Assembly: GCF_022530855.2 (NCBI RefSeq)
Contig: NZ_CP099567.1
Location: 2,480,001-2,544,000, forward strand
Source of the DNA: Candidatus Vondammii sp. HM_W22
Lineage (GTDB): Bacteria > Pseudomonadota > Gammaproteobacteria > Chromatiales > Chromatiaceae
Direction of reading: 5' to 3'
Length of the DNA: 64,000 nucleotides
Shown here piece by piece: positions 8,578 to 52,499 of this stretch. Position numbers and translations under genes: made by a program. Within the stretch, counting starts at the first letter, position 1. Every line of letters starts with the position of its first letter. The notes beneath the pieces were generated by a model. That model saw only the letters and a program-made list of their open reading frames with translations. It did no database searches and was not told the DNA's origin.

Positions 8578-9884
8578 GAGGGTGTAACGATTTCCGTGTA
8601 ACTGCCCGGGTTAAATGTACTCCGCCAAGCGTTCTTCGAACTCAATCATAAATCTATTCAGTGCTGGTTTCCAATTGCGAATCGGCATGGTCCATTTTTT
8701 TGATGCTTGCTGCACCGTCAGGTACACCACTTTCATTGCCGAGTCGTCGGTCGGAAATAGCTTCCGTTTTTTAATTACCTTGTGAACCACGCTGTTCATT
8801 GACTCGATGGCATTGGTTGTATAGATTGCCCTGCGGATGTCCTCAGGGTAGCCAAACAGGGTATTAATATTGTGCCAGTGGCTACGCCACGAACGGCTGA
8901 GCTGGGGATATTTGTCGTCCCATCGGTTAGAGAAATTATCAAGTTCCAGTAGCGCTTCATCTTCGGTGACAGGCTTATATATTTTCTTCAGGTCTGCCGT
9001 CACTGCCTTGTAGTCTTTCCAGGGCACATACTTCATCGAGTTGCGCACCATGTAAACAATACAAAGCTGGATCTGAGTCTCGGGAAACGCTGTATCGATT
9101 GCGTCTGGAAAGCCCTTCAGGCCATCGACACAGGCTATCAGTATATCCTTCACGCCGCGATTCTGGAGCTCTGTGAGTACATTGAGCCAGAACTTGGCAC
9201 CCTCATTCTCTGACAGCCAGAGCCCCAACAATTCCTTGTGGCCCTCCATGTTCACGCCCAGTGCCAGATAAATTGCCTTATTGATCACTTTCTTATCTTG
9301 CCGGATTTTTACGACAATACAATCCAGGTAAATAATGGGATAGACCGCATCCAGTGGCCTAGATGGCCATTCAATCACTTGTTCAATAACAGCGTCAGTC
9401 ACTTTGGAAATCAAGGTGGCGGAAACATCAGCACCGTACATTTCTTTAACGGTCGTGACGATTTCTCGTGTTGTCATGCCCTGGGCATACAAGAAAATAA
9501 TCTTGTTGTCCATGGAAGTAAATCGACGCGGGTGTTTTTTAACGAGCTTGGGCTCGAAACTCCCAGCTCTGTCGCGTGGTGTATCGAGCTCGAACTGGCC
9601 AGCTTCCGTTCGGTTAGTCTTACTGGCATAGCCGTTGCGGTTATTGGCAGCTGCGGACTGCTCGTGCCTTTCAAAGCCAAGATGATCATCTAACTCAGCG
9701 TTCAGTGCCGCTTCGATCGTAATCTTGGTTAGCATCTGCTGGAAGTCTTTGTGGTCGTCTTCCGTCTTGATATTTTTAGCGGCCGCATGAGCGATCGCCT
9801 GTAGTTCTTTCTTGTTCATAGTGCTTATCCTCACCCTTGTCTGGGTTTAATAATAGGCAGTTACACAGAATTCAGGACACCCTC
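8578..9884 (-). mobile_element. IS256-family element, copy A (intact transposase)
   Basis: 1307 bases between the ends GAGGGTGTAACGATTTCCGTGTAACTGCC-like (from 8578) and its inverted partner ..GGCAGTTACACAGAATTCAGGACACCCTC (to 9884). The innermost GTGTAACTGCC is shared with three other copies in the window (B, C, D). No clear 8-base target duplication is seen (caaaaagc / tatcggaa). It has inserted into, and removed the 3' part of, an IS1595-type transposase gene on its right. It is the only copy of this type with an open transposase. Confidence 0.85.
8611..9819 (-). CDS. IS256-family (mutator type) transposase
   Basis: 402-residue DDE transposase. The catalytic acidic residues lie in the conserved settings YLDCIVVKIRQD, IACVDGLKGFPDAI and TTNAIESMNS, which are the family hallmarks; the N-terminal part has the MTTREIV..MYG.DVSATLISKVTD DNA-binding segment. 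ATG 9819 is chosen over an upstream GTG (9834) because a GAGG ribosome-binding sequence lies about 9 bases before it. Length is normal for the family and no internal stop occurs, so this copy may be active and could act on the defective copies at 20018, 45988 and 52571. Confidence 0.93.
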   Translation of the reverse strand: MNKKELQAIAHAAAKNIKTEDDHKDFQQMLTKITIEAALNAELDDHLGFERHEQSAAANNRNGYASKTNRTEAGQFELDTPRDRAGSFEPKLVKKHPRRFTSMDNKIIFLYAQGMTTREIVTTVKEMYGADVSATLISKVTDAVIEQVIEWPSRPLDAVYPIIYLDCIVVKIRQDKKVINKAIYLALGVNMEGHKELLGLWLSENEGAKFWLNVLTELQNRGVKDILIACVDGLKGFPDAIDTAFPETQIQLCIVYMVRNSMKYVPWKDYKAVTADLKKIYKPVTEDEALLELDNFSNRWDDKYPQLSRSWRSHWHNINTLFGYPEDIRRAIYTTNAIESMNSVVHKVIKKRKLFPTDDSAMKVVYLTVQQASKKWTMPIRNWKPALNRFMIEFEERLAEYI

Positions 9885-45987: not shown

Positions 45988-46919
45988 TTATACTGCCTGG
46001 GTTAAATATATACCGCCAAGCGTTCTTCGAACTCAATCATAAATCTATTCAGTGCTGGTTTCCAATGACGGATCGGCATTGTCCACTTTTTCGATGCGGC
46101 CTGGATTGCCAGGTGGATTACCTTCTTCGCCGAGTCATCGGTGGAAACAACTTCCGCTTTTTGATCACTTTGCGAATGACGCTGTTCAGCGACTCAATGG
46201 CGTTGGTCGTGTAGATCACTTTTCGTCTGTCCTCCGGGTAGTTGAACAGCGTGCTGAGATTCTGCCAATAAGCACTCCAGGAGCGGCTGATCTAGCGAGG
46301 TAAATTGCTTTGTTGATCACTTTCTTGTCTTGCCGGATTTTAACGACAATGCTGCCCAGATAAACAATAGGCTGAGTCGCACCCAGGGAGCGAGATTGCC
46401 ATTCGACAACCTGTTCGGTAACCGCATCAGTAACTTTGGATATGAGTGTCGCGGAGACATCGGCTCCGTACATTTCCCTGAATGTCGTGACAATTGCGGG
46501 GGTCATCATACCCTGAGCATACAGGAAGAGGATCTTGTCATGCATTGAGGTAAATCAACGCCGGTGCTTTTTAACCAGCCGGGGTTTAAAGCTGCCCGCT
46601 CTTTCTCGTGGAGTATCCCCTTCAAACTGGCCATCTTCCGTTTGCAAAGTCTTGCCAGTAGTACCGTTGCAGCTATTACTCGCTTCGGGTTGTTCATGTT
46701 TGGCAAAGCCAAGGATGATCAGCCGGTTCAACGTTGAGTGCTGCATCGACCGTGATTTTGGCCAGCATTGGCCGAAACTCGTTGTGATCTTCTTCAGTTT
46801 TGACGTTATTAGCGGCTGCTTGGGCTATCGCCTGGAGCTCTTTTTTGTCGATCAGCTGCCTGTCCTCTCCCTTGTTTGGGTTTAATGATAGGCAGTTACA
46901 CAGAATTTAGGTCTGTCTC
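45988..46919 (-). mobile_element. IS256-family element, copy C, internally deleted
   Basis: The right end ..GGCAGTTACACAGAATTTAGGTCTGTCTC (to 46919) is good; the left end is degraded (only TATACTGCC..GGGTTAAATATA remains near 45990). The transposase has lost about 390 bases in the middle: the C-terminal third (LSTLFNYPEDRRKVIYTTNA) is joined directly near 46294 to KVINKAIYLA of the N-terminal half. Extra stops (e.g. FTSMHDKILFLYAQGMMTPA preceded by a stop) confirm it is dead. Confidence 0.82.
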
Positions 46920-47015: not shown

Positions 47016-47618
47016 GTGTCCAATCAACAGATCAGCTATATCATCGGCGACCGACTCTACCTCAATATCACCGACAGATGCACCCTGGAGTGCGCCTTCT
47101 GCCCGAAGACTCAGGGTGTTCATAAGGTCCATGATTATGACCTGACCCTGAAGCAACGGCCCACGGTTGAGCAGATAATCGCAGCCATTGATGACCCTGC
47201 AAAATATGCTGAGGTAGTCTTCTGCGGTTTTGGAGAACCCACACTGCGGTTCAAGGTACTGCTTGAAGTGGCCCGCTACATAAAGGCGAATGGTGGTAAT
47301 GTCAAAATCAACACCGACGGGCTGGCTAATCTTGTCAACAAACGCAATGTCCTGCCGGAGATGGCCGAATGCGTGGATGCACTCTCTATCTCGTTAAATG
47401 CGCAGAACGCTGAAGTCTATGATCGCCACTGCGTCCCGGCATTGGCTGGCTCTTATGAAAAGATGCTGGAATTTCTAGCGAAGGCCCCAAAATACATCAA
47501 GGATGTCACCGCTACGGCCATTGATGGCCTGGAGGGGGTGGATATTGCCGCCTGTGAGGCACTGACGGAAGAACGGAATGTTAAATTCCGCTGTCGTCAA
47601 CTGGGTAAAGTAGGATAA
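47016..47618 (+). CDS. TatD-linked-type radical SAM protein
   Basis: 200-residue small radical SAM protein. The cluster-binding motif is C-x3-C-x2-C at Cys22, Cys26 and Cys29 (RCTLECAFCPKTQG), and the SAM-contact glycines are VVFCGFGEPTLR near residue 70; NGGNVKINTDGLANL follows. Length and the opening YIIGDRLYLNITDRC match the family known as TatD-associated radical SAM proteins, although no tatD is in view. The start is a GTG at 47016. It is six bases upstream of the dioxygenase gene and shares its strand, so the two are very likely one transcript. Substrate unknown. Confidence 0.88.
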   Translation: MSNQQISYIIGDRLYLNITDRCTLECAFCPKTQGVHKVHDYDLTLKQRPTVEQIIAAIDDPAKYAEVVFCGFGEPTLRFKVLLEVARYIKANGGNVKINTDGLANLVNKRNVLPEMAECVDALSISLNAQNAEVYDRHCVPALAGSYEKMLEFLAKAPKYIKDVTATAIDGLEGVDIAACEALTEERNVKFRCRQLGKVG

Positions 47619-47624
47619 AATCGG

Positions 47625-48503
47625 ATGCAAACCAACAGCCCATACTATCTCCATGACAATGATGCTTACAAAAGCTGGTGCGATGAAAAGCTTCAGAATT
47701 ATCCAGCTTCTCTGGAAGATTTGATTGTCGAGATCAATGATCAGCAGCACCTGACGCCAGCGGAACACCAAGCGGTCATGACACTGATCAAAAAAGTCGG
47801 CATGGCGATCTATGCAAGCCATAATGGCAACCCTCATGACAAAGAGCTGATTCGTAGCCTTGGGCTGCAGTTCGGTCTAGACCACCTTGATCACAATATG
47901 TGTGCGGATGAAGACGCCATCACCTCACTGGCGGTACAGCCGGATGCCTTGCATAAAGGCTATATCCCATACTCGAACCGCCCCATCGCTTGGCACACCG
48001 ACGGCTATTACAACAACATGAGCCAGCAGATCCACGGGCTGCTGCTCCACTGCGTTCAACCGGCCGCAAACGGGGGAGCCAATGAATTTCTGGACCATGA
48101 AATCATTTACATGCAGTTGCGGGATATAAACCCGATTTATATTCATGCGCTGATGAATCCCGAGGCGATGACTATCCCGGCCAATATTGTCGATGGCAAA
48201 GAGTTACGGCCCGCCCGCACCGGCCCGGTGTTTCAGATCCGTAACGATGGCAGATTGCATATGCGCTACACAGACCGCAGCCGCAGTATCGAGTGGCGGG
48301 ATGACCCGGCCACCCAGGAGGCCGTCACAGAACTGAAGCGGCTGCTCAGGGCAGACTCTCCCTACCATTTCAAAGGAACGCTTCAGGCCGGCCAGGGGTT
48401 GATCAGCAACAATACCCTCCACACCCGTGATAGTTTTGAAGATGGCGACAGTGAACGTCTGCTCTATCGCGCCCGCTACTTTGACAGTATTAAGGGGGCC
48501 TGA
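47625..48503 (+). CDS. TauD/TfdA-family Fe(II)/2-oxoglutarate dioxygenase
   Basis: 292-residue TauD/TfdA-like oxygenase. The iron-binding facial triad is visible as His124 and Asp126 in IAWHTDGYYN and His266 in NNTLHTRDSFED, with Arg282 in LLYRARYFD in the usual 2-oxoglutarate-binding position. Such enzymes hydroxylate or cleave small substrates such as sulfonates or betaines. The neighbour downstream encodes a GBBH-like (DUF971) domain, the domain fused N-terminally to TauD in gamma-butyrobetaine hydroxylase, so a quaternary-amine or related substrate is conceivable. That is inference only. A 77-base gap separates the two genes. Confidence 0.87.
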   Translation: MQTNSPYYLHDNDAYKSWCDEKLQNYPASLEDLIVEINDQQHLTPAEHQAVMTLIKKVGMAIYASHNGNPHDKELIRSLGLQFGLDHLDHNMCADEDAITSLAVQPDALHKGYIPYSNRPIAWHTDGYYNNMSQQIHGLLLHCVQPAANGGANEFLDHEIIYMQLRDINPIYIHALMNPEAMTIPANIVDGKELRPARTGPVFQIRNDGRLHMRYTDRSRSIEWRDDPATQEAVTELKRLLRADSPYHFKGTLQAGQGLISNNTLHTRDSFEDGDSERLLYRARYFDSIKGA

Positions 48504-48580
48504 CAGGCACCAAAAGTATTGATACACATGAGCCGCTATGCAATTATCCGCCACCCCATTTTATTATCACGAGTTGCCAC

Positions 48581-49219
48581 ATGAGTAACCAGCCCCCGAA
48601 AAGAGTCCCATCAGAGATCAATCTTCACAGTAAATCACGACTGCTGATCATTGAGTACGCCGATGGCAAGCGATTTGAGTTGCCATGTGAGTATCTGCGC
48701 GTCTTCTCAAGAGCCATGGAGGTGCGAGCCATGGAAGGACCCATCACAGGCAAGGAAGGAGTCAATGTCACCGAGATTCAAGCTCAGGGGCGGTACGCCA
48801 TCCGATTGATATTCGATGACGGCCACGACACCGGCATCTACTCTTGGGACACACTCTACGACCTAGGGGAAAACAAGGAGAAAAACTGGCAGACGTATCT
48901 CAAACAGCTGGAAGAGATCGGTTATGACCGGAATGCTGATACGGCAAAGCCGCGCAAGGTCAAACTTCTCTATTTCACCTATCTGGTAAAAAAACTCCAT
49001 CGGAAGTCAGAAGAGGTAGATCTCGCTGAATCAGTAAAAGATGTTGCATCACTGCTCGAATGGGTCCGCCGACGCAACCGCGACAAAGCCCATCTGTTTA
49101 AAGAGGGGAGTGTTCAAGTGACGATCAACAAGCAGTTCTCAGAGCCGTTTACCTTGCTTGAAGACGGCGATGAGATCGCCTTCATTCCAACCTCGCCGAT
49201 CGCCCCCGTTGCTGACTGA
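48581..49219 (+). CDS. DUF971 (GBBH-like) domain fused to MoaD/ThiS-like domain
   Basis: 212 residues in two parts. Residues about 8-105 are a DUF971/GBBH-like domain (SKSRLLIIEYADGKRFELPC, EYLRVFSRAMEVR, and the hallmark YAIRLIFDDGHDTGIYSWDT then LYDLG). Residues about 126-206 resemble a MoaD/ThiS beta-grasp domain (VKLLYFTYLVKKL, SVKDVASLLEWVRRR, VQVTINKQF, LLEDGDEIAFIPTSPIA). MoaD needs a C-terminal Gly-Gly to be activated; here the chain ends PIAPVAD, so it is probably a structural or regulatory version. DUF971 alone is widespread; the fusion is less usual to my knowledge. Confidence 0.82.
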   Translation: MSNQPPKRVPSEINLHSKSRLLIIEYADGKRFELPCEYLRVFSRAMEVRAMEGPITGKEGVNVTEIQAQGRYAIRLIFDDGHDTGIYSWDTLYDLGENKEKNWQTYLKQLEEIGYDRNADTAKPRKVKLLYFTYLVKKLHRKSEEVDLAESVKDVASLLEWVRRRNRDKAHLFKEGSVQVTINKQFSEPFTLLEDGDEIAFIPTSPIAPVAD

Positions 49220-49255: not shown

Positions 49256-49903
49256 TCATGCCGATGGATCATCATTATTCTCAATTCGTTCATTGAAAAT
49301 ATTGGCGACCATTGCCATCTTGACCAGCTCTGCCAGCGAGTTTGCCTGCATCTTCTCCATCACCCGGGCACGATGCGCCTCTACCGTTTTTGCGCTGACA
49401 CCCAGCGCAAGCGCTATCTCTTTGTTGGCCCGGCCATTGGTGACCATCTCCATTACCTGATGTTCACGAGGGGTAAGCGCTGCCAGCCGCGCAGCAATTT
49501 CTGACCTCTCTGCCTGAAGCGACCGTTGCTCTACATCAATTATCAAGGCATTTCTTATACTATCGAGCAGCAGTTCGTCATTAAAGGGTTTTTCAATAAA
49601 ATCGACTGCACCTACCTTCATGGCACGTACCGCCATCGGGACATCACCATGTCCGGTGATGATGATGACTGGGATTCTGATCTGCTGTTCTACGAAGTAC
49701 TCCTGGAGTTCTATTCCGCTCATTCCAGGCATTCTCACATCCAGCAGAAGACACCCCGCCCGCCCGGGATAATAGTTGCGGATAAACTCATCGGCAGAGC
49801 CAAAAACCTCCACATTCATGCCGACGCTCTCAATCAGCCATTTCAGTGAATTACGCATCGCCTGATCATCATCCACCACGAAAACAGTCGCTTTATTACC
49901 CAT
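49256..49903 (-). CDS. FixJ/TodT-type response regulator
   Basis: 215-residue regulator: receiver domain (1-120) with the acidic pocket Asp11-Asp13, phospho-acceptor Asp55 in CLLLDVRMPGMSG, Thr in IIITGHGDVPMAV and Lys in FIEKPFNDE. A LuxR-type helix-turn-helix follows (about 145-205; LTPREHQVMEMVTNGRANKE, ALGVSAKTVEAHRARVMEKM). The arrangement is that of FixJ/StyR/TodT. It overlaps the sensor kinase gene upstream by eight bases, so the pair forms an operon, convergent with the DUF971-MoaD gene 36 bases away. Target genes are not evident; the adjacent cluster is a candidate. Confidence 0.94.
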   Translation of the reverse strand: MGNKATVFVVDDDQAMRNSLKWLIESVGMNVEVFGSADEFIRNYYPGRAGCLLLDVRMPGMSGIELQEYFVEQQIRIPVIIITGHGDVPMAVRAMKVGAVDFIEKPFNDELLLDSIRNALIIDVEQRSLQAERSEIAARLAALTPREHQVMEMVTNGRANKEIALALGVSAKTVEAHRARVMEKMQANSLAELVKMAMVANIFNERIENNDDPSA

Positions 49904-52499
49904 CTCTCTCCTCCCCGCTCGGAATCATAATGCTGAACCGGGTGCCACCTTCTTCTAAACGTTCCGCACTGATTTTTCCGTTATGATCTTCAATAATCGT
50001 CTGACTGATAACCAGCCCCATCCCCATGCCACTCTGCTTGGTAGTATAAAAAGGTTCGAACAGGCGGCCCATCGCCTCATCCTGGATTCCAGGCCCCGAG
50101 TCCAGCACCTCAATAAGGATGTATCCTCCCGCCTGACAACTTGTTCGAATAATCAGGCTGCGTTCATCTTCCTGTATTTCCAGCAGGGCATCAAGGGCAT
50201 TTCTGACCAGATTTAGCAGTACCTGCTCGATCTGCACCACATCTACCCTGGCTTTCAACAAAACCAGACTCAGCTCCTGCTCGATAACCACATTCGCTTT
50301 TCGTGCCTGAAACTCGACAAATGAGCAGACCTCTTTCACCAGCTGGTTGATATCTGCAACACTGCGGATCGGCGGCTGTTTACCGATCAAGCTGCGCAGG
50401 CGCTTGATAATCTCTCCTGCACGGTCGGCCTGGGAGTTAATCTGGCCCAGAGCATGAAGAATATCGTCCCCCCCGTTGCCACTCAACTGCAAACGGCGTA
50501 CACAACCATTCGCATAATTGGCAATGGCTGACAACGGCTGATTCAATTCGTGAGCCAGCCCAGTCGCCATCTCACCCATGGTGCTCAGGCGGCATACATG
50601 AATCAGCTCCTGTTGATGTTCCCGTGCCTGGTGTTCGGCCTGACGCACAGCAGTGATATCACGGCCATAGATATTCACATAACCAAGGTCTACCACGGGC
50701 GTTATCAGCAGAGAGTATATGCGGTCATCGCTGACCAACTGGGATTCCCAATCCTTGCCCGACAGAAAAACATCTGAAATCCGTTTTTTCCAGTAGAGCG
50801 GTAGTGTCTGTCCCTGCTCACAGCCCCAGTATTCGAGCAGGGGAGCACTGGCAGCATTGGCATAAATAATCACCCCGGGCTGGTTGACTCTAAGCACAGG
50901 ACTGGGACTCTCCGATGGGAATTTCGCCAGACTTCTGATCACCTGCTCAGCCCGCCGCCGGTTCGACATATCGTGCATATAGACCGTAAACACAACCCGG
51001 GTCTGGAGCTGAATTGGTTTTATCGCGATCTCAACAGGCAGCTGGTTGCCTTCCCGGGTAACAGCCCACATCTCATGCTGGACCTCTTCTTTCTGATCAC
51101 CGGGATTTTCAAGAAAACTGTTAAGCATATTGCGGAACACTGGCTGATTTTTCACGTCCAGCATCAATTCGGCAAAACTCTCTCCAATCACTTCATCCCG
51201 ATCATGCCCCAAAGTCTGGGCCGCCGTGTTATTAAACTCGATAATTCGCCCGGTCTCATCAATGGTAACAATAGAATCTAGGGCAGCCTCCATAATCGTG
51301 CGCTTCAGCGCCTCGGACTCCTGCATCTCAAATTCATGCTGCTGTCGCATCTCATCCCTGGCATCCCGCACCAGCCGGATAAACTGCTTAATCCAGTCTT
51401 CCAATACAAACAGTTGGTTACCCTGCTCAATAATCGGTTGAGCTTCACCCAGCGCCCGCCGTGAAAAAAGTGAAATACGCCGAAGTATCCGATTCAACCG
51501 TTCCGATAACAGATAGAAGACAAGGGTAAAAATAGTGACAAAGGCCGTTGCTGTTATAATTCGCTGCCGCCGCTCCAATCCCGCAACCCGGCCCCTGATC
51601 ACCTCCATCACTGTATTGGGTACCAGCGTGGCAAACTGGATATTGATGGTCGATCCTTCATACTCGAAAAAAGATTGGTCAGTCACCTGATAGTCATGCT
51701 CCACCTTTTCCATCAATACCCCAGGTGGCAACCTCTTGTAATCACTGCTGGAAAGAAAGCGCTGCTCATCTGCATCCAGCAGACCTACCACCACATCATC
51801 CAGGGCAACCCCCTGTTGTGATGAGGTGAGAAATTGCTCATCGATGGGTGCCATCATCATCAGCAGACCCATGACGGTACCAGTGGCATCTTCTGCCGTC
51901 TCAGATACCAGAAGGTAGGGTTCATCACCGAGGGTGGTAAGCAGCGCCTGCACCCGGTTTTCACTTGAAAAAAGCTCGTTGATACCCGCCAGCTCGGAAG
52001 GCAAGTTGCGTTTTCCGACCTGATAAATCTCGCGGGTTCGACCTTGTTTATCGATCAGCAAAATGTGGCTCGGCTGAATCAGCGTCCGCCAAAGGGCTGT
52101 ATTGGGCAGCCAGGGGGGCGTATTGTAATAGACAAACGGCACTTCTCTGTCACTCTCAAGCCAATGGACAGGCTCCAAATACTGAGACAACTTGCGATGA
52201 TTTGCCAAAAGACGGATGGTTGATGTGTGGGCCGTTACGTAGTTGTTATAACGAATCAACGTCTCTCTGGCCTGCTGCTCCAGGCGGACCTTCAGTTCAT
52301 CGGCAAAAATACTCTTCAGCGCCCGGGGCTGCACCTGCTCCAGCACGAGCCAGACGAACAGGCCGCAGAATAAGCCAACCAAAATCGCCAACAGGGGCAT
52401 GGGTATGCGCCGTAATAGATTGGGACGTGATATTAACGGACTCTGCATTGTTCCAGCATTATGACGGCCAAAAGGAACTGTCGCCAGTCTCTGTTGCAT
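49896..52499 (-). CDS. Membrane PAS sensor histidine kinase (FixL-like)
   Basis: 867 residues: helix at about 35-55, a large extracytoplasmic sensor region (about 56-315), a second helix (about 318-338), a PAS domain (about 400-510, ALDSIVTIDETGRIIEFNNT), a second PAS-like region (about 525-630), then HisKA with the phosphorylated His650 in GLAHELNQPLSAIANYANG. The ATPase domain has N (LLNLVRNALDAL), G1 (LDSGPGI), F (FEPFYTTKQSG) and G2 (MGMGLVIS) boxes. The HELNQPL box is the FixL/TodS-like kinase type. A start at 52448 (18th codon) is an alternative. No haem-binding PAS signature was identified, so the stimulus is unknown. Confidence 0.93.
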   Translation of the reverse strand: MQQRLATVPFGRHNAGTMQSPLISRPNLLRRIPMPLLAILVGLFCGLFVWLVLEQVQPRALKSIFADELKVRLEQQARETLIRYNNYVTAHTSTIRLLANHRKLSQYLEPVHWLESDREVPFVYYNTPPWLPNTALWRTLIQPSHILLIDKQGRTREIYQVGKRNLPSELAGINELFSSENRVQALLTTLGDEPYLLVSETAEDATGTVMGLLMMMAPIDEQFLTSSQQGVALDDVVVGLLDADEQRFLSSSDYKRLPPGVLMEKVEHDYQVTDQSFFEYEGSTINIQFATLVPNTVMEVIRGRVAGLERRQRIITATAFVTIFTLVFYLLSERLNRILRRISLFSRRALGEAQPIIEQGNQLFVLEDWIKQFIRLVRDARDEMRQQHEFEMQESEALKRTIMEAALDSIVTIDETGRIIEFNNTAAQTLGHDRDEVIGESFAELMLDVKNQPVFRNMLNSFLENPGDQKEEVQHEMWAVTREGNQLPVEIAIKPIQLQTRVVFTVYMHDMSNRRRAEQVIRSLAKFPSESPSPVLRVNQPGVIIYANAASAPLLEYWGCEQGQTLPLYWKKRISDVFLSGKDWESQLVSDDRIYSLLITPVVDLGYVNIYGRDITAVRQAEHQAREHQQELIHVCRLSTMGEMATGLAHELNQPLSAIANYANGCVRRLQLSGNGGDDILHALGQINSQADRAGEIIKRLRSLIGKQPPIRSVADINQLVKEVCSFVEFQARKANVVIEQELSLVLLKARVDVVQIEQVLLNLVRNALDALLEIQEDERSLIIRTSCQAGGYILIEVLDSGPGIQDEAMGRLFEPFYTTKQSGMGMGLVISQTIIEDHNGKISAERLEEGGTRFSIMIPSGEERDG

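What the first reader, a model, noticed from the sequence alone, without database searches (positions are those of the whole stretch)
47016..49219. Compact radical SAM - TauD dioxygenase - DUF971/MoaD cluster of unknown pathway
Three intact, co-directional genes survive in a neighbourhood otherwise full of pseudogenes and IS, which implies selection. DUF971 is the N-terminal domain of gamma-butyrobetaine and trimethyllysine hydroxylases, whose C-terminal domain is TauD-like. Here the two halves are separate neighbours, with a ubiquitin-like domain added and a small radical SAM enzyme in front (6-base spacing to tauD). The combination suggests an oxidative modification of a small metabolite or cofactor in which the DUF971-MoaD protein is a non-catalytic partner.
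Basis: partly seen in the sequence, partly recalled or inferred. Interest (0 to 1): 0.72.

Follow-up and report, generated by a model that had tools for sequence, protein, structure and literature searches.

The report
Relocated sulfur-pathway dioxygenase gene cluster
Three small intact genes in a sulfur-oxidising bacterium form a conserved cluster around an uncharacterised oxygen-using enzyme that, in relatives, almost always accompanies the sulfur-oxidation (dsr) genes, together with a helper protein found almost only where that enzyme is found.

Summary
Three intact, co-directional genes lie at 47016-49219: a 200-aa radical SAM protein (TIGR04038), a 292-aa Fe(II)/2-oxoglutarate dioxygenase of the TauD/GBBH fold, and a 212-aa DUF971-plus-MoaD-like protein. 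They are under purifying selection. The trio recurs in Sedimenticola-like genomes and each pair recurs in other genera, so it is not a strain accident.

The dioxygenase belongs to the sequence family called tauD/dsrQ in the literature. In 274 gammaproteobacterial genomes it occurs almost exactly where dsrA does (86 of 91; odds ratio 507); in 57 it is divergently adjacent to dsrA. In the window's genome the dsr divergon is intact but lacks this gene; the only copy is in the window. At class level the DUF971-MoaD protein occurs only with the dioxygenase and dsrA (19/19). Its ubiquitin-like tail lacks Gly-Gly, so it is no ordinary sulfur carrier. The radical SAM gene is a recurrent neighbour of ubiU/ubiV.

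Best reading: an rDsr-associated, split GBBH/TmpA-type oxygenase with a DUF971 partner acting in trans; the radical SAM's role is unproven. AlphaFold found no confident interface (inconclusive). The substrate is unknown.

The parts
47016..47618 (+). small radical SAM protein, 200 aa, TIGR04038 (TatD family nuclease-associated radical SAM), CX3CX2C motif (CTLECAFC), GTG start
   Evidence: TIGR04038 265.6 bits, cut-off 129.7; PF04055; orthologues 60-80% in relatives
47625..48503 (+). Fe(II)/2-oxoglutarate dioxygenase of the TauD/GBBH fold, of the sequence family named tauD/dsrQ; Fe ligands H124, D126, H266 invariant; only copy in the genome
   Evidence: PF02668; invariant residues; fold Z 21.5 to TmpA and 20.3 to BBOX1; co-occurrence with dsrA; single copy
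48581..48940 (+). DUF971 / GBBH-like_N domain of the third protein
   Evidence: PF06155 84.5 bits, residues 13-93; solved relatives 2l6n, 2l6p, 3luu
48941..49219 (+). MoaD/ThiS-like (ubiquitin-like) domain of the third protein, without the C-terminal Gly-Gly
   Evidence: PF02597 26.8 bits, residues 130-203; tail alignment of 44 homologues
49256..49903 (-). FixJ-like response regulator, convergent conserved neighbour
   Evidence: NF006900 FixJ 251.3 bits, just under the cut-off of 255; present beside the DUF971-MoaD gene in 15 related loci
49896..52499 (-). FixL-like PAS sensor histidine kinase, conserved neighbour
   Evidence: HATPase_c, HisKA and PAS domains; conserved in the same 15 loci
46216..46545 (-). 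IS256-like transposase fragment that separates the trio from its usual upstream neighbours (HDOD-protein gene and yebC-ruvCAB-tol in relatives)
   Evidence: shares long stretches with the intact transposase ORF at 8611-9834; arrangement in relatives

Best explanation
The cluster encodes an accessory oxidation module of reverse-dsr (rDsr) sulfur oxidisers living at low oxygen. Its core is a 2-oxoglutarate dioxygenase of the dsr-associated tauD/dsrQ family whose gene has left (or replaced the copy at) its usual place opposite dsrA and now sits in an operon. The enzyme corresponds to the catalytic half of GBBH/TmpA-type hydroxylases. Most likely it hydroxylates a small charged metabolite or cofactor, and the neighbouring DUF971-ubiquitin-like protein supplies in trans the N-terminal domain that GBBH and TmpA carry fused, as a non-catalytic partner. 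The small radical SAM protein probably performs a separate O2-independent step needed in the same redox regime, since its relatives sit beside the anaerobic ubiquinone genes ubiUV. Shown: gene content, family assignment, intact active sites, conserved adjacency, co-occurrence with dsrA, absence of the gene from the genome's own dsr divergon. Inferred: physical partnership, substrate, shared pathway with the radical SAM protein.
For: Dioxygenase vs dsrA in 274 class genomes: 86 of 91 dioxygenase-positive genomes have dsrA and only 6 dsrA-positive lack the dioxygenase, odds ratio 507, p 5e-57; in 57 genomes it lies within 2 kb of dsrA, always divergent. In the order, 12 of 17 dioxygenase-negative genomes lack dsrA against 1 of 20 positive ones. 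The window genome keeps the divergon c28-c37-Cas6-like-DsrC-like opposite dsrA without the dioxygenase, and has a single copy, in the window. The same holds in G052, G069, G046, G008, G078, G080, G087, G021, G108 and others, and G082 retains a truncated copy at the dsr site. DUF971-MoaD: 19/19 with dioxygenase and dsrA, 77/78 in the order, adjacent to the dioxygenase in 12 of 79 loci. Fold: TmpA Z 21.5, BBOX1 Z 20.3, TauD 17.4. Radical SAM within 6 kb of ubiU in 14 genomes of 11 families; dioxygenase within 4 kb of ubiU in 10 genomes of 8 families. DsrQ prior art: PMC7596348.
Against: No confident TauD/DUF971 interface in the fused AlphaFold run (pTM 0.57). The DUF971-MoaD gene is far from the dioxygenase gene in most Chromatiaceae. 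Within dsrA-positive genomes it is not correlated with the radical SAM. The radical SAM occurs without the other two in genera g19, g42 and others. Co-occurrence of all genes could reflect shared lifestyle rather than a shared reaction.
Confidence: 0.45

Rival explanations
1. Loose neighbourhood: three independent low-oxygen accessory genes that drift around the same hot spots (aspS/yebC-ruv-tol, ubiUV, dsr) and do not share a pathway.
For: Each gene often stands alone; the radical SAM is not correlated with the dioxygenase in the order sample (p 0.78); DUF971-MoaD and radical SAM are uncorrelated among dsrA-positive genomes.
Against: All three pairs recur adjacent and co-directional in different genera, with the trio in at least four genomes and 6-bp or few-bp gaps; DUF971-MoaD is nested within dioxygenase-positive genomes.
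Confidence: 0.3
2. Sulfonate breakdown: the dioxygenase acts like taurine dioxygenase and frees sulfite from sulfonates, which then enters sulfur oxidation (the proposal made for TauD/DsrQ in the literature).
For: Proposed for TauD/DsrQ (PMC7596348); near-perfect link to dsrA.
Against: By sequence profile the nearest solved relatives are TmpA, DfmD and GBBH, and TauD does not reach E 0.01; by fold TmpA and GBBH lead TauD by 3-4 Z units. An optional nutrient pathway would not be expected to track dsrA so strictly.
Confidence: 0.12
3. Ubiquinone module: the cluster serves O2-independent or low-O2 ubiquinone synthesis.
For: Radical SAM and dioxygenase both recur beside ubiU-ubiV-ubiT, the dioxygenase starting 3 bp after ubiV in one genome; radical SAM and ubiU co-occur both inside and outside dsrA-positive genomes.
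Against: The dioxygenase follows dsrA, not ubiU: 45 of 91 carriers lack ubiU. In the window genome ubiUV lies 1.35 Mb away. UbiUV and UbiT are known to suffice with the common Ubi enzymes in E. coli (PMC6747719).
Confidence: 0.1
4. Sulfur-carrier chemistry: the MoaD-like domain is a thiocarboxylate sulfur carrier and the radical SAM a thiolation or MoaA-like enzyme.
For: MoaD/ThiS fold; sulfur-oxidising hosts.
Against: No C-terminal Gly-Gly in any of 44 homologues; MoaD equivalog cut-off not met (41.2 vs 66.15); no adjacent E1-like gene.
Confidence: 0.03

Closest known systems
TauD/DsrQ, the tauD-like gene divergent from dsrA in sulfur oxidisers (named by Lenk et al. 2012 as reported in PMC7596348)
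   Same: Same sequence family, same strict co-occurrence with dsrA, same Fe(II)/2OG active site
   Different: In the window the gene is not beside dsr; it lies in an operon with a radical SAM and a DUF971-MoaD gene, and the dsr divergon of this genome lacks it
gamma-butyrobetaine hydroxylase (BBOX1) and TmpA (2-trimethylaminoethylphosphonate hydroxylase)
   Same: Nearest solved folds of the catalytic domain; both families carry an N-terminal domain ahead of the matched region
   Different: Far below the family cut-offs (36.9 vs 414.75 and 33.2 vs 400 bits); no fused N-terminal DUF971 domain here, a separate DUF971 protein instead, with an added ubiquitin-like domain
TIGR04038 TatD family nuclease-associated radical SAM proteins
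   Same: Full-length match well above cut-off
   Different: Neighbours in the window are not tatD; in Gammaproteobacteria the recurrent neighbours found here are ubiU/ubiV and mnmL/yhcC
Stand-alone DUF971 proteins (for example the Pseudomonas protein of PDB 2l6p)
   Same: Homologous DUF971 domain, 53% identical paralogue in the same genome
   Different: The window protein has an extra C-terminal MoaD-like domain without Gly-Gly and a far narrower distribution
UbiU-UbiV-UbiT O2-independent ubiquinone genes
   Same: Recurrent chromosomal neighbours of the radical SAM and of the dioxygenase in other genera
   Different: Not adjacent in the window genome; no sequence relation

Membership tests
TauD/GBBH-type Fe(II)/2OG dioxygenases (PF02668) | profile score above cut-off and 2-His-1-carboxylate iron site | tested here: met
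   64.5 bits, cut-off 27; H124, D126 and H266 invariant in 12 diverse homologues
TauD/DsrQ | same sequence family as dsrA-divergent tauD-like proteins | tested here: met
   40-70% identity and one tree with dsr-adjacent copies
TauD/DsrQ | gene located opposite dsrA | tested here: not met
   dsrA is at 710115 of the genome, this gene at 2527625; the divergon is present but lacks the gene. So it is described as a relocated relative, not filed as DsrQ
gamma-butyrobetaine hydroxylase (TIGR02409) | equivalog cut-off and fused N-terminal DUF971 domain | tested here: not met
   36.9 bits vs 414.75; DUF971 is on a separate protein
TIGR04038 radical SAM | profile score above cut-off and radical SAM CX3CX2C motif | tested here: met
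   265.6 vs 129.7 bits; CTLECAFC in the sequence
DUF971 / GBBH-like_N (PF06155) | profile score above cut-off | tested here: met
   84.5 vs 22.8 bits
MoaD sulfur carrier (TIGR01682) | equivalog cut-off and C-terminal Gly-Gly | tested here: not met
   41.2 vs 66.15 bits; tail ends SPIAPVAD, no Gly-Gly in 44 homologues
Split GBBH/TmpA-like enzyme with a partner in trans | physical interface between dioxygenase and DUF971 protein | tested here: inconclusive
   read-through chain folded, pTM 0.57; only five rows were paired

The most novel reading that the evidence does not exclude
The rDsr-associated dioxygenase is a split GBBH-type enzyme: its N-terminal regulatory or dimerisation domain is a separate DUF971-ubiquitin-like protein that has no function without it, and together they form an overlooked, O2-dependent step attached to reverse-dsr sulfur oxidation, paired in some lineages with an O2-independent radical SAM counterpart.
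Probability: 0.3. Interest if true: 0.72.

Novelty: new variant of a known kind. Interest (0 to 1): 0.52.

Why it matters
An oxygenase gene that tracks dsrA almost one to one across Gammaproteobacteria, yet has no assigned reaction, points to a missing step or repair reaction in one of the main routes of microbial sulfur oxidation. The window adds two leads that make it testable: a candidate dedicated partner protein (DUF971 plus a tail-less ubiquitin-like domain) and a genome in which the gene is free of the dsr divergon, so it can be deleted without touching dsr expression. The link between the TIGR04038 radical SAM and ubiUV is a second lead, for anaerobic ubiquinone synthesis.

Tried and rejected
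A sulfur-carrier or molybdopterin role was rejected: no Gly-Gly tail in 44 homologues and no E1 gene nearby. Carnitine/butyrobetaine metabolism was rejected as a family assignment: scores are far below the cut-offs. A first AlphaFold run on alignment A3 failed for the dioxygenase (pLDDT under 50 in most of it); a second with a corrected alignment (A6) folded both proteins. An earlier alignment, A2, aligned dioxygenase-only rows onto the DUF971 part and was discarded. The first genome-contig scan with the single window protein found nothing; a profile of the MoaD half worked. An FNR-site search (TTGATNNNNATCAA, up to 2 mismatches) gave no convincing site upstream of the radical SAM. Promoter and terminator scans gave nothing that separates the three genes: no terminator-like site between them. 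Whole-genome download was not available. No paper mentions TIGR04038; the paper that first named DsrQ is not held, so its content is cited through PMC7596348. DALI-like rows that span residues beyond 294 of the fused model were not used as evidence for an interface.

Full report
What is there. The window lies at 2,480,001-2,544,000 of a 3.35-Mb, one-contig genome whose nearest named relatives in the searches are Sedimenticola and other Chromatiales sulfur oxidisers. Three co-directional ORFs at 47016-47618, 47625-48503 and 48581-49219 encode a radical SAM protein of family TIGR04038, a PF02668 dioxygenase and a DUF971 (PF06155) plus MoaD/ThiS (PF02597) protein. None has an internal stop. Against relatives the non-synonymous distance is 0.15-0.31 with synonymous sites near saturation. 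Gaps are 6 and 77 bp, with no terminator-like site between the genes. The upstream side is IS debris; the downstream side is an intact convergent FixJ/FixL-like pair.

Is it conserved? In 147 genomes of the order, the radical SAM and dioxygenase are adjacent in the other species of the genus (G052, about 10 bp apart) and in genera g11 and g34. Dioxygenase and DUF971-MoaD are adjacent in g13 and G080. Radical SAM and DUF971-MoaD are adjacent in g21, G087, G033 and G130. All three are together in G069 and, up to a contig end that cuts the radical SAM gene, in G122. A second collection gave the complete trio in L173, L178 and L187, a dioxygenase/DUF971-MoaD pair in 12 of 79 loci and FixLJ beside the DUF971-MoaD gene in 15. 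The cluster is therefore not accidental to this strain. Neither is it universal: in Thiodiazotropha, Thiocystis and most others the three genes are apart.

Which pathway? Clustering of neighbourhoods showed relatives of the dioxygenase opposite dsrA. Family models confirm DsrA, DsrK and DsrC. In a class-wide sample of 274 genomes, 86 of the 91 with the dioxygenase have dsrA and only 6 with dsrA lack it (expected overlap 30.6, p 5e-57); in 57 genomes the two lie within 2 kb, always divergent. Within the order, dioxygenase-negative genomes mostly lack dsrA too (12 of 17, against 1 of 20 controls). The usual divergon is dsrA opposite dioxygenase, a 60-70-aa protein, a 240-aa protein, a Cas6-like protein (PF09559, TIGR02807) and a DsrC-like protein. 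The window genome has this divergon (L275) with the last four genes and dsrA, but without the dioxygenase. Its only dioxygenase gene is the one in the window. The same loss at the dsr site is seen in ten or so relatives, and G082 keeps a truncated copy there. So the window gene has most likely replaced the copy at dsr after duplication or transposition. The tree puts it in a well-supported clade of copies that lie away from dsr, separate from the dsr-adjacent ones. The literature calls the dsr-adjacent gene tauD/dsrQ and speculates about sulfonate breakdown (PMC7596348).

The radical SAM. TIGR04038 proteins lie within 6 kb of ubiU in 14 genomes from 11 families, at 16-69 bp in four of them. 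UbiU, UbiV, UbiT and MnmL/YhcC were confirmed by curated models. The dioxygenase is within 4 kb of ubiU in 10 genomes of 8 families, starting 3 bp after the ubiV match in G269. The radical SAM and ubiU co-occur both inside and outside dsrA-positive genomes. This suggests a role in low-oxygen or anaerobic metabolism, but the radical SAM also occurs without dioxygenase and DUF971-MoaD.

The DUF971-MoaD protein. It is found in 19 class-sample genomes, all with the dioxygenase and dsrA, against 6 expected, and in 78 order-sample genomes, 77 of which have the dioxygenase (p 2e-5). Shared ancestry of the genomes inflates these figures, but the nesting is strict. Its ubiquitin-like domain ends in a proline-rich tail without Gly-Gly in all 44 homologues aligned, so thiocarboxylate chemistry is unlikely.

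How it may work. By profile and fold the dioxygenase is closest to TmpA and BBOX1, over their catalytic domains only (chain residues about 97-377); TauD scores lower (Z 17.4). The iron ligands are invariant. Both reference enzymes carry residues ahead of that range that form their own N-terminal domain (established knowledge of GBBH; PF06155 is named after it), so a missing N-terminal domain here and a co-inherited separate DUF971 protein fit a split enzyme. The direct test was weak: a natural read-through of L178 (TGA read as Trp) with 28 rows folded both proteins (pLDDT 81.7) but gave pTM 0.57, about what two undocked domains would give (the comparison is an estimate). Only five rows carried both proteins, so absence of a confident interface is inconclusive.

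Limits. Co-occurrence counts treat genomes as independent; the class sample holds at most a few genomes per family, which softens but does not remove this. The 1e-30 to 1e-100 thresholds were chosen by hand. Membership of the window gene in DsrQ in the strict, positional sense is not met and is not claimed. The substrate, the partnership and the role of the radical SAM protein remain inference.

Noticed in passing
L164:8020-8706, L126:11420-12115, own genome L275:7888-8544: A Cas6-family protein (PF09559, TIGR02807 above cut-off) is a fixed member of the divergon opposite dsrA in sulfur oxidisers, followed by a DsrC-like gene. In the divergons inspected it is flanked by dsr genes and small unknown proteins, not by recognised CRISPR genes.
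   Followed up: partly
L126:10682-11401 and L165:8466-8654: Two further conserved families of the same divergon (about 240 aa and 60-70 aa) have no Pfam match.
   Followed up: partly
L108:5917-6915, L253, L254, L255, L261, L263, own genome L276:10425-11318: The tRNA-modification radical SAM gene mnmL/yhcC sits directly upstream of ubiU-ubiV in many sulfur oxidisers.
   Followed up: no
L133:7037-8581, L156:14327-15971, L162:9606-10332: A membrane protein, a DUF2249 protein and a hemerythrin form a small cluster beside the dioxygenase or ubiUVT in several families.
   Followed up: no
L274: In an IMG/VR contig a relative of the dioxygenase lies next to a reverse-transcriptase ORF and a formylglycine-like variable protein, which looks like a diversity-generating retroelement.
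   Followed up: no
L289:8293-8826 (G082): A truncated dioxygenase gene remains at the dsr site while an intact copy lies elsewhere in the genome.
   Followed up: partly
G000:C1:135779-136144: The genome also has a stand-alone DUF971 protein, 53% identical to the DUF971 part of the window protein.
   Followed up: no
window, whole: FNR-like 14-mers with up to two mismatches are more frequent than in shuffles (58 vs 37 expected); repeated IS copies may explain part of this.
   Followed up: no
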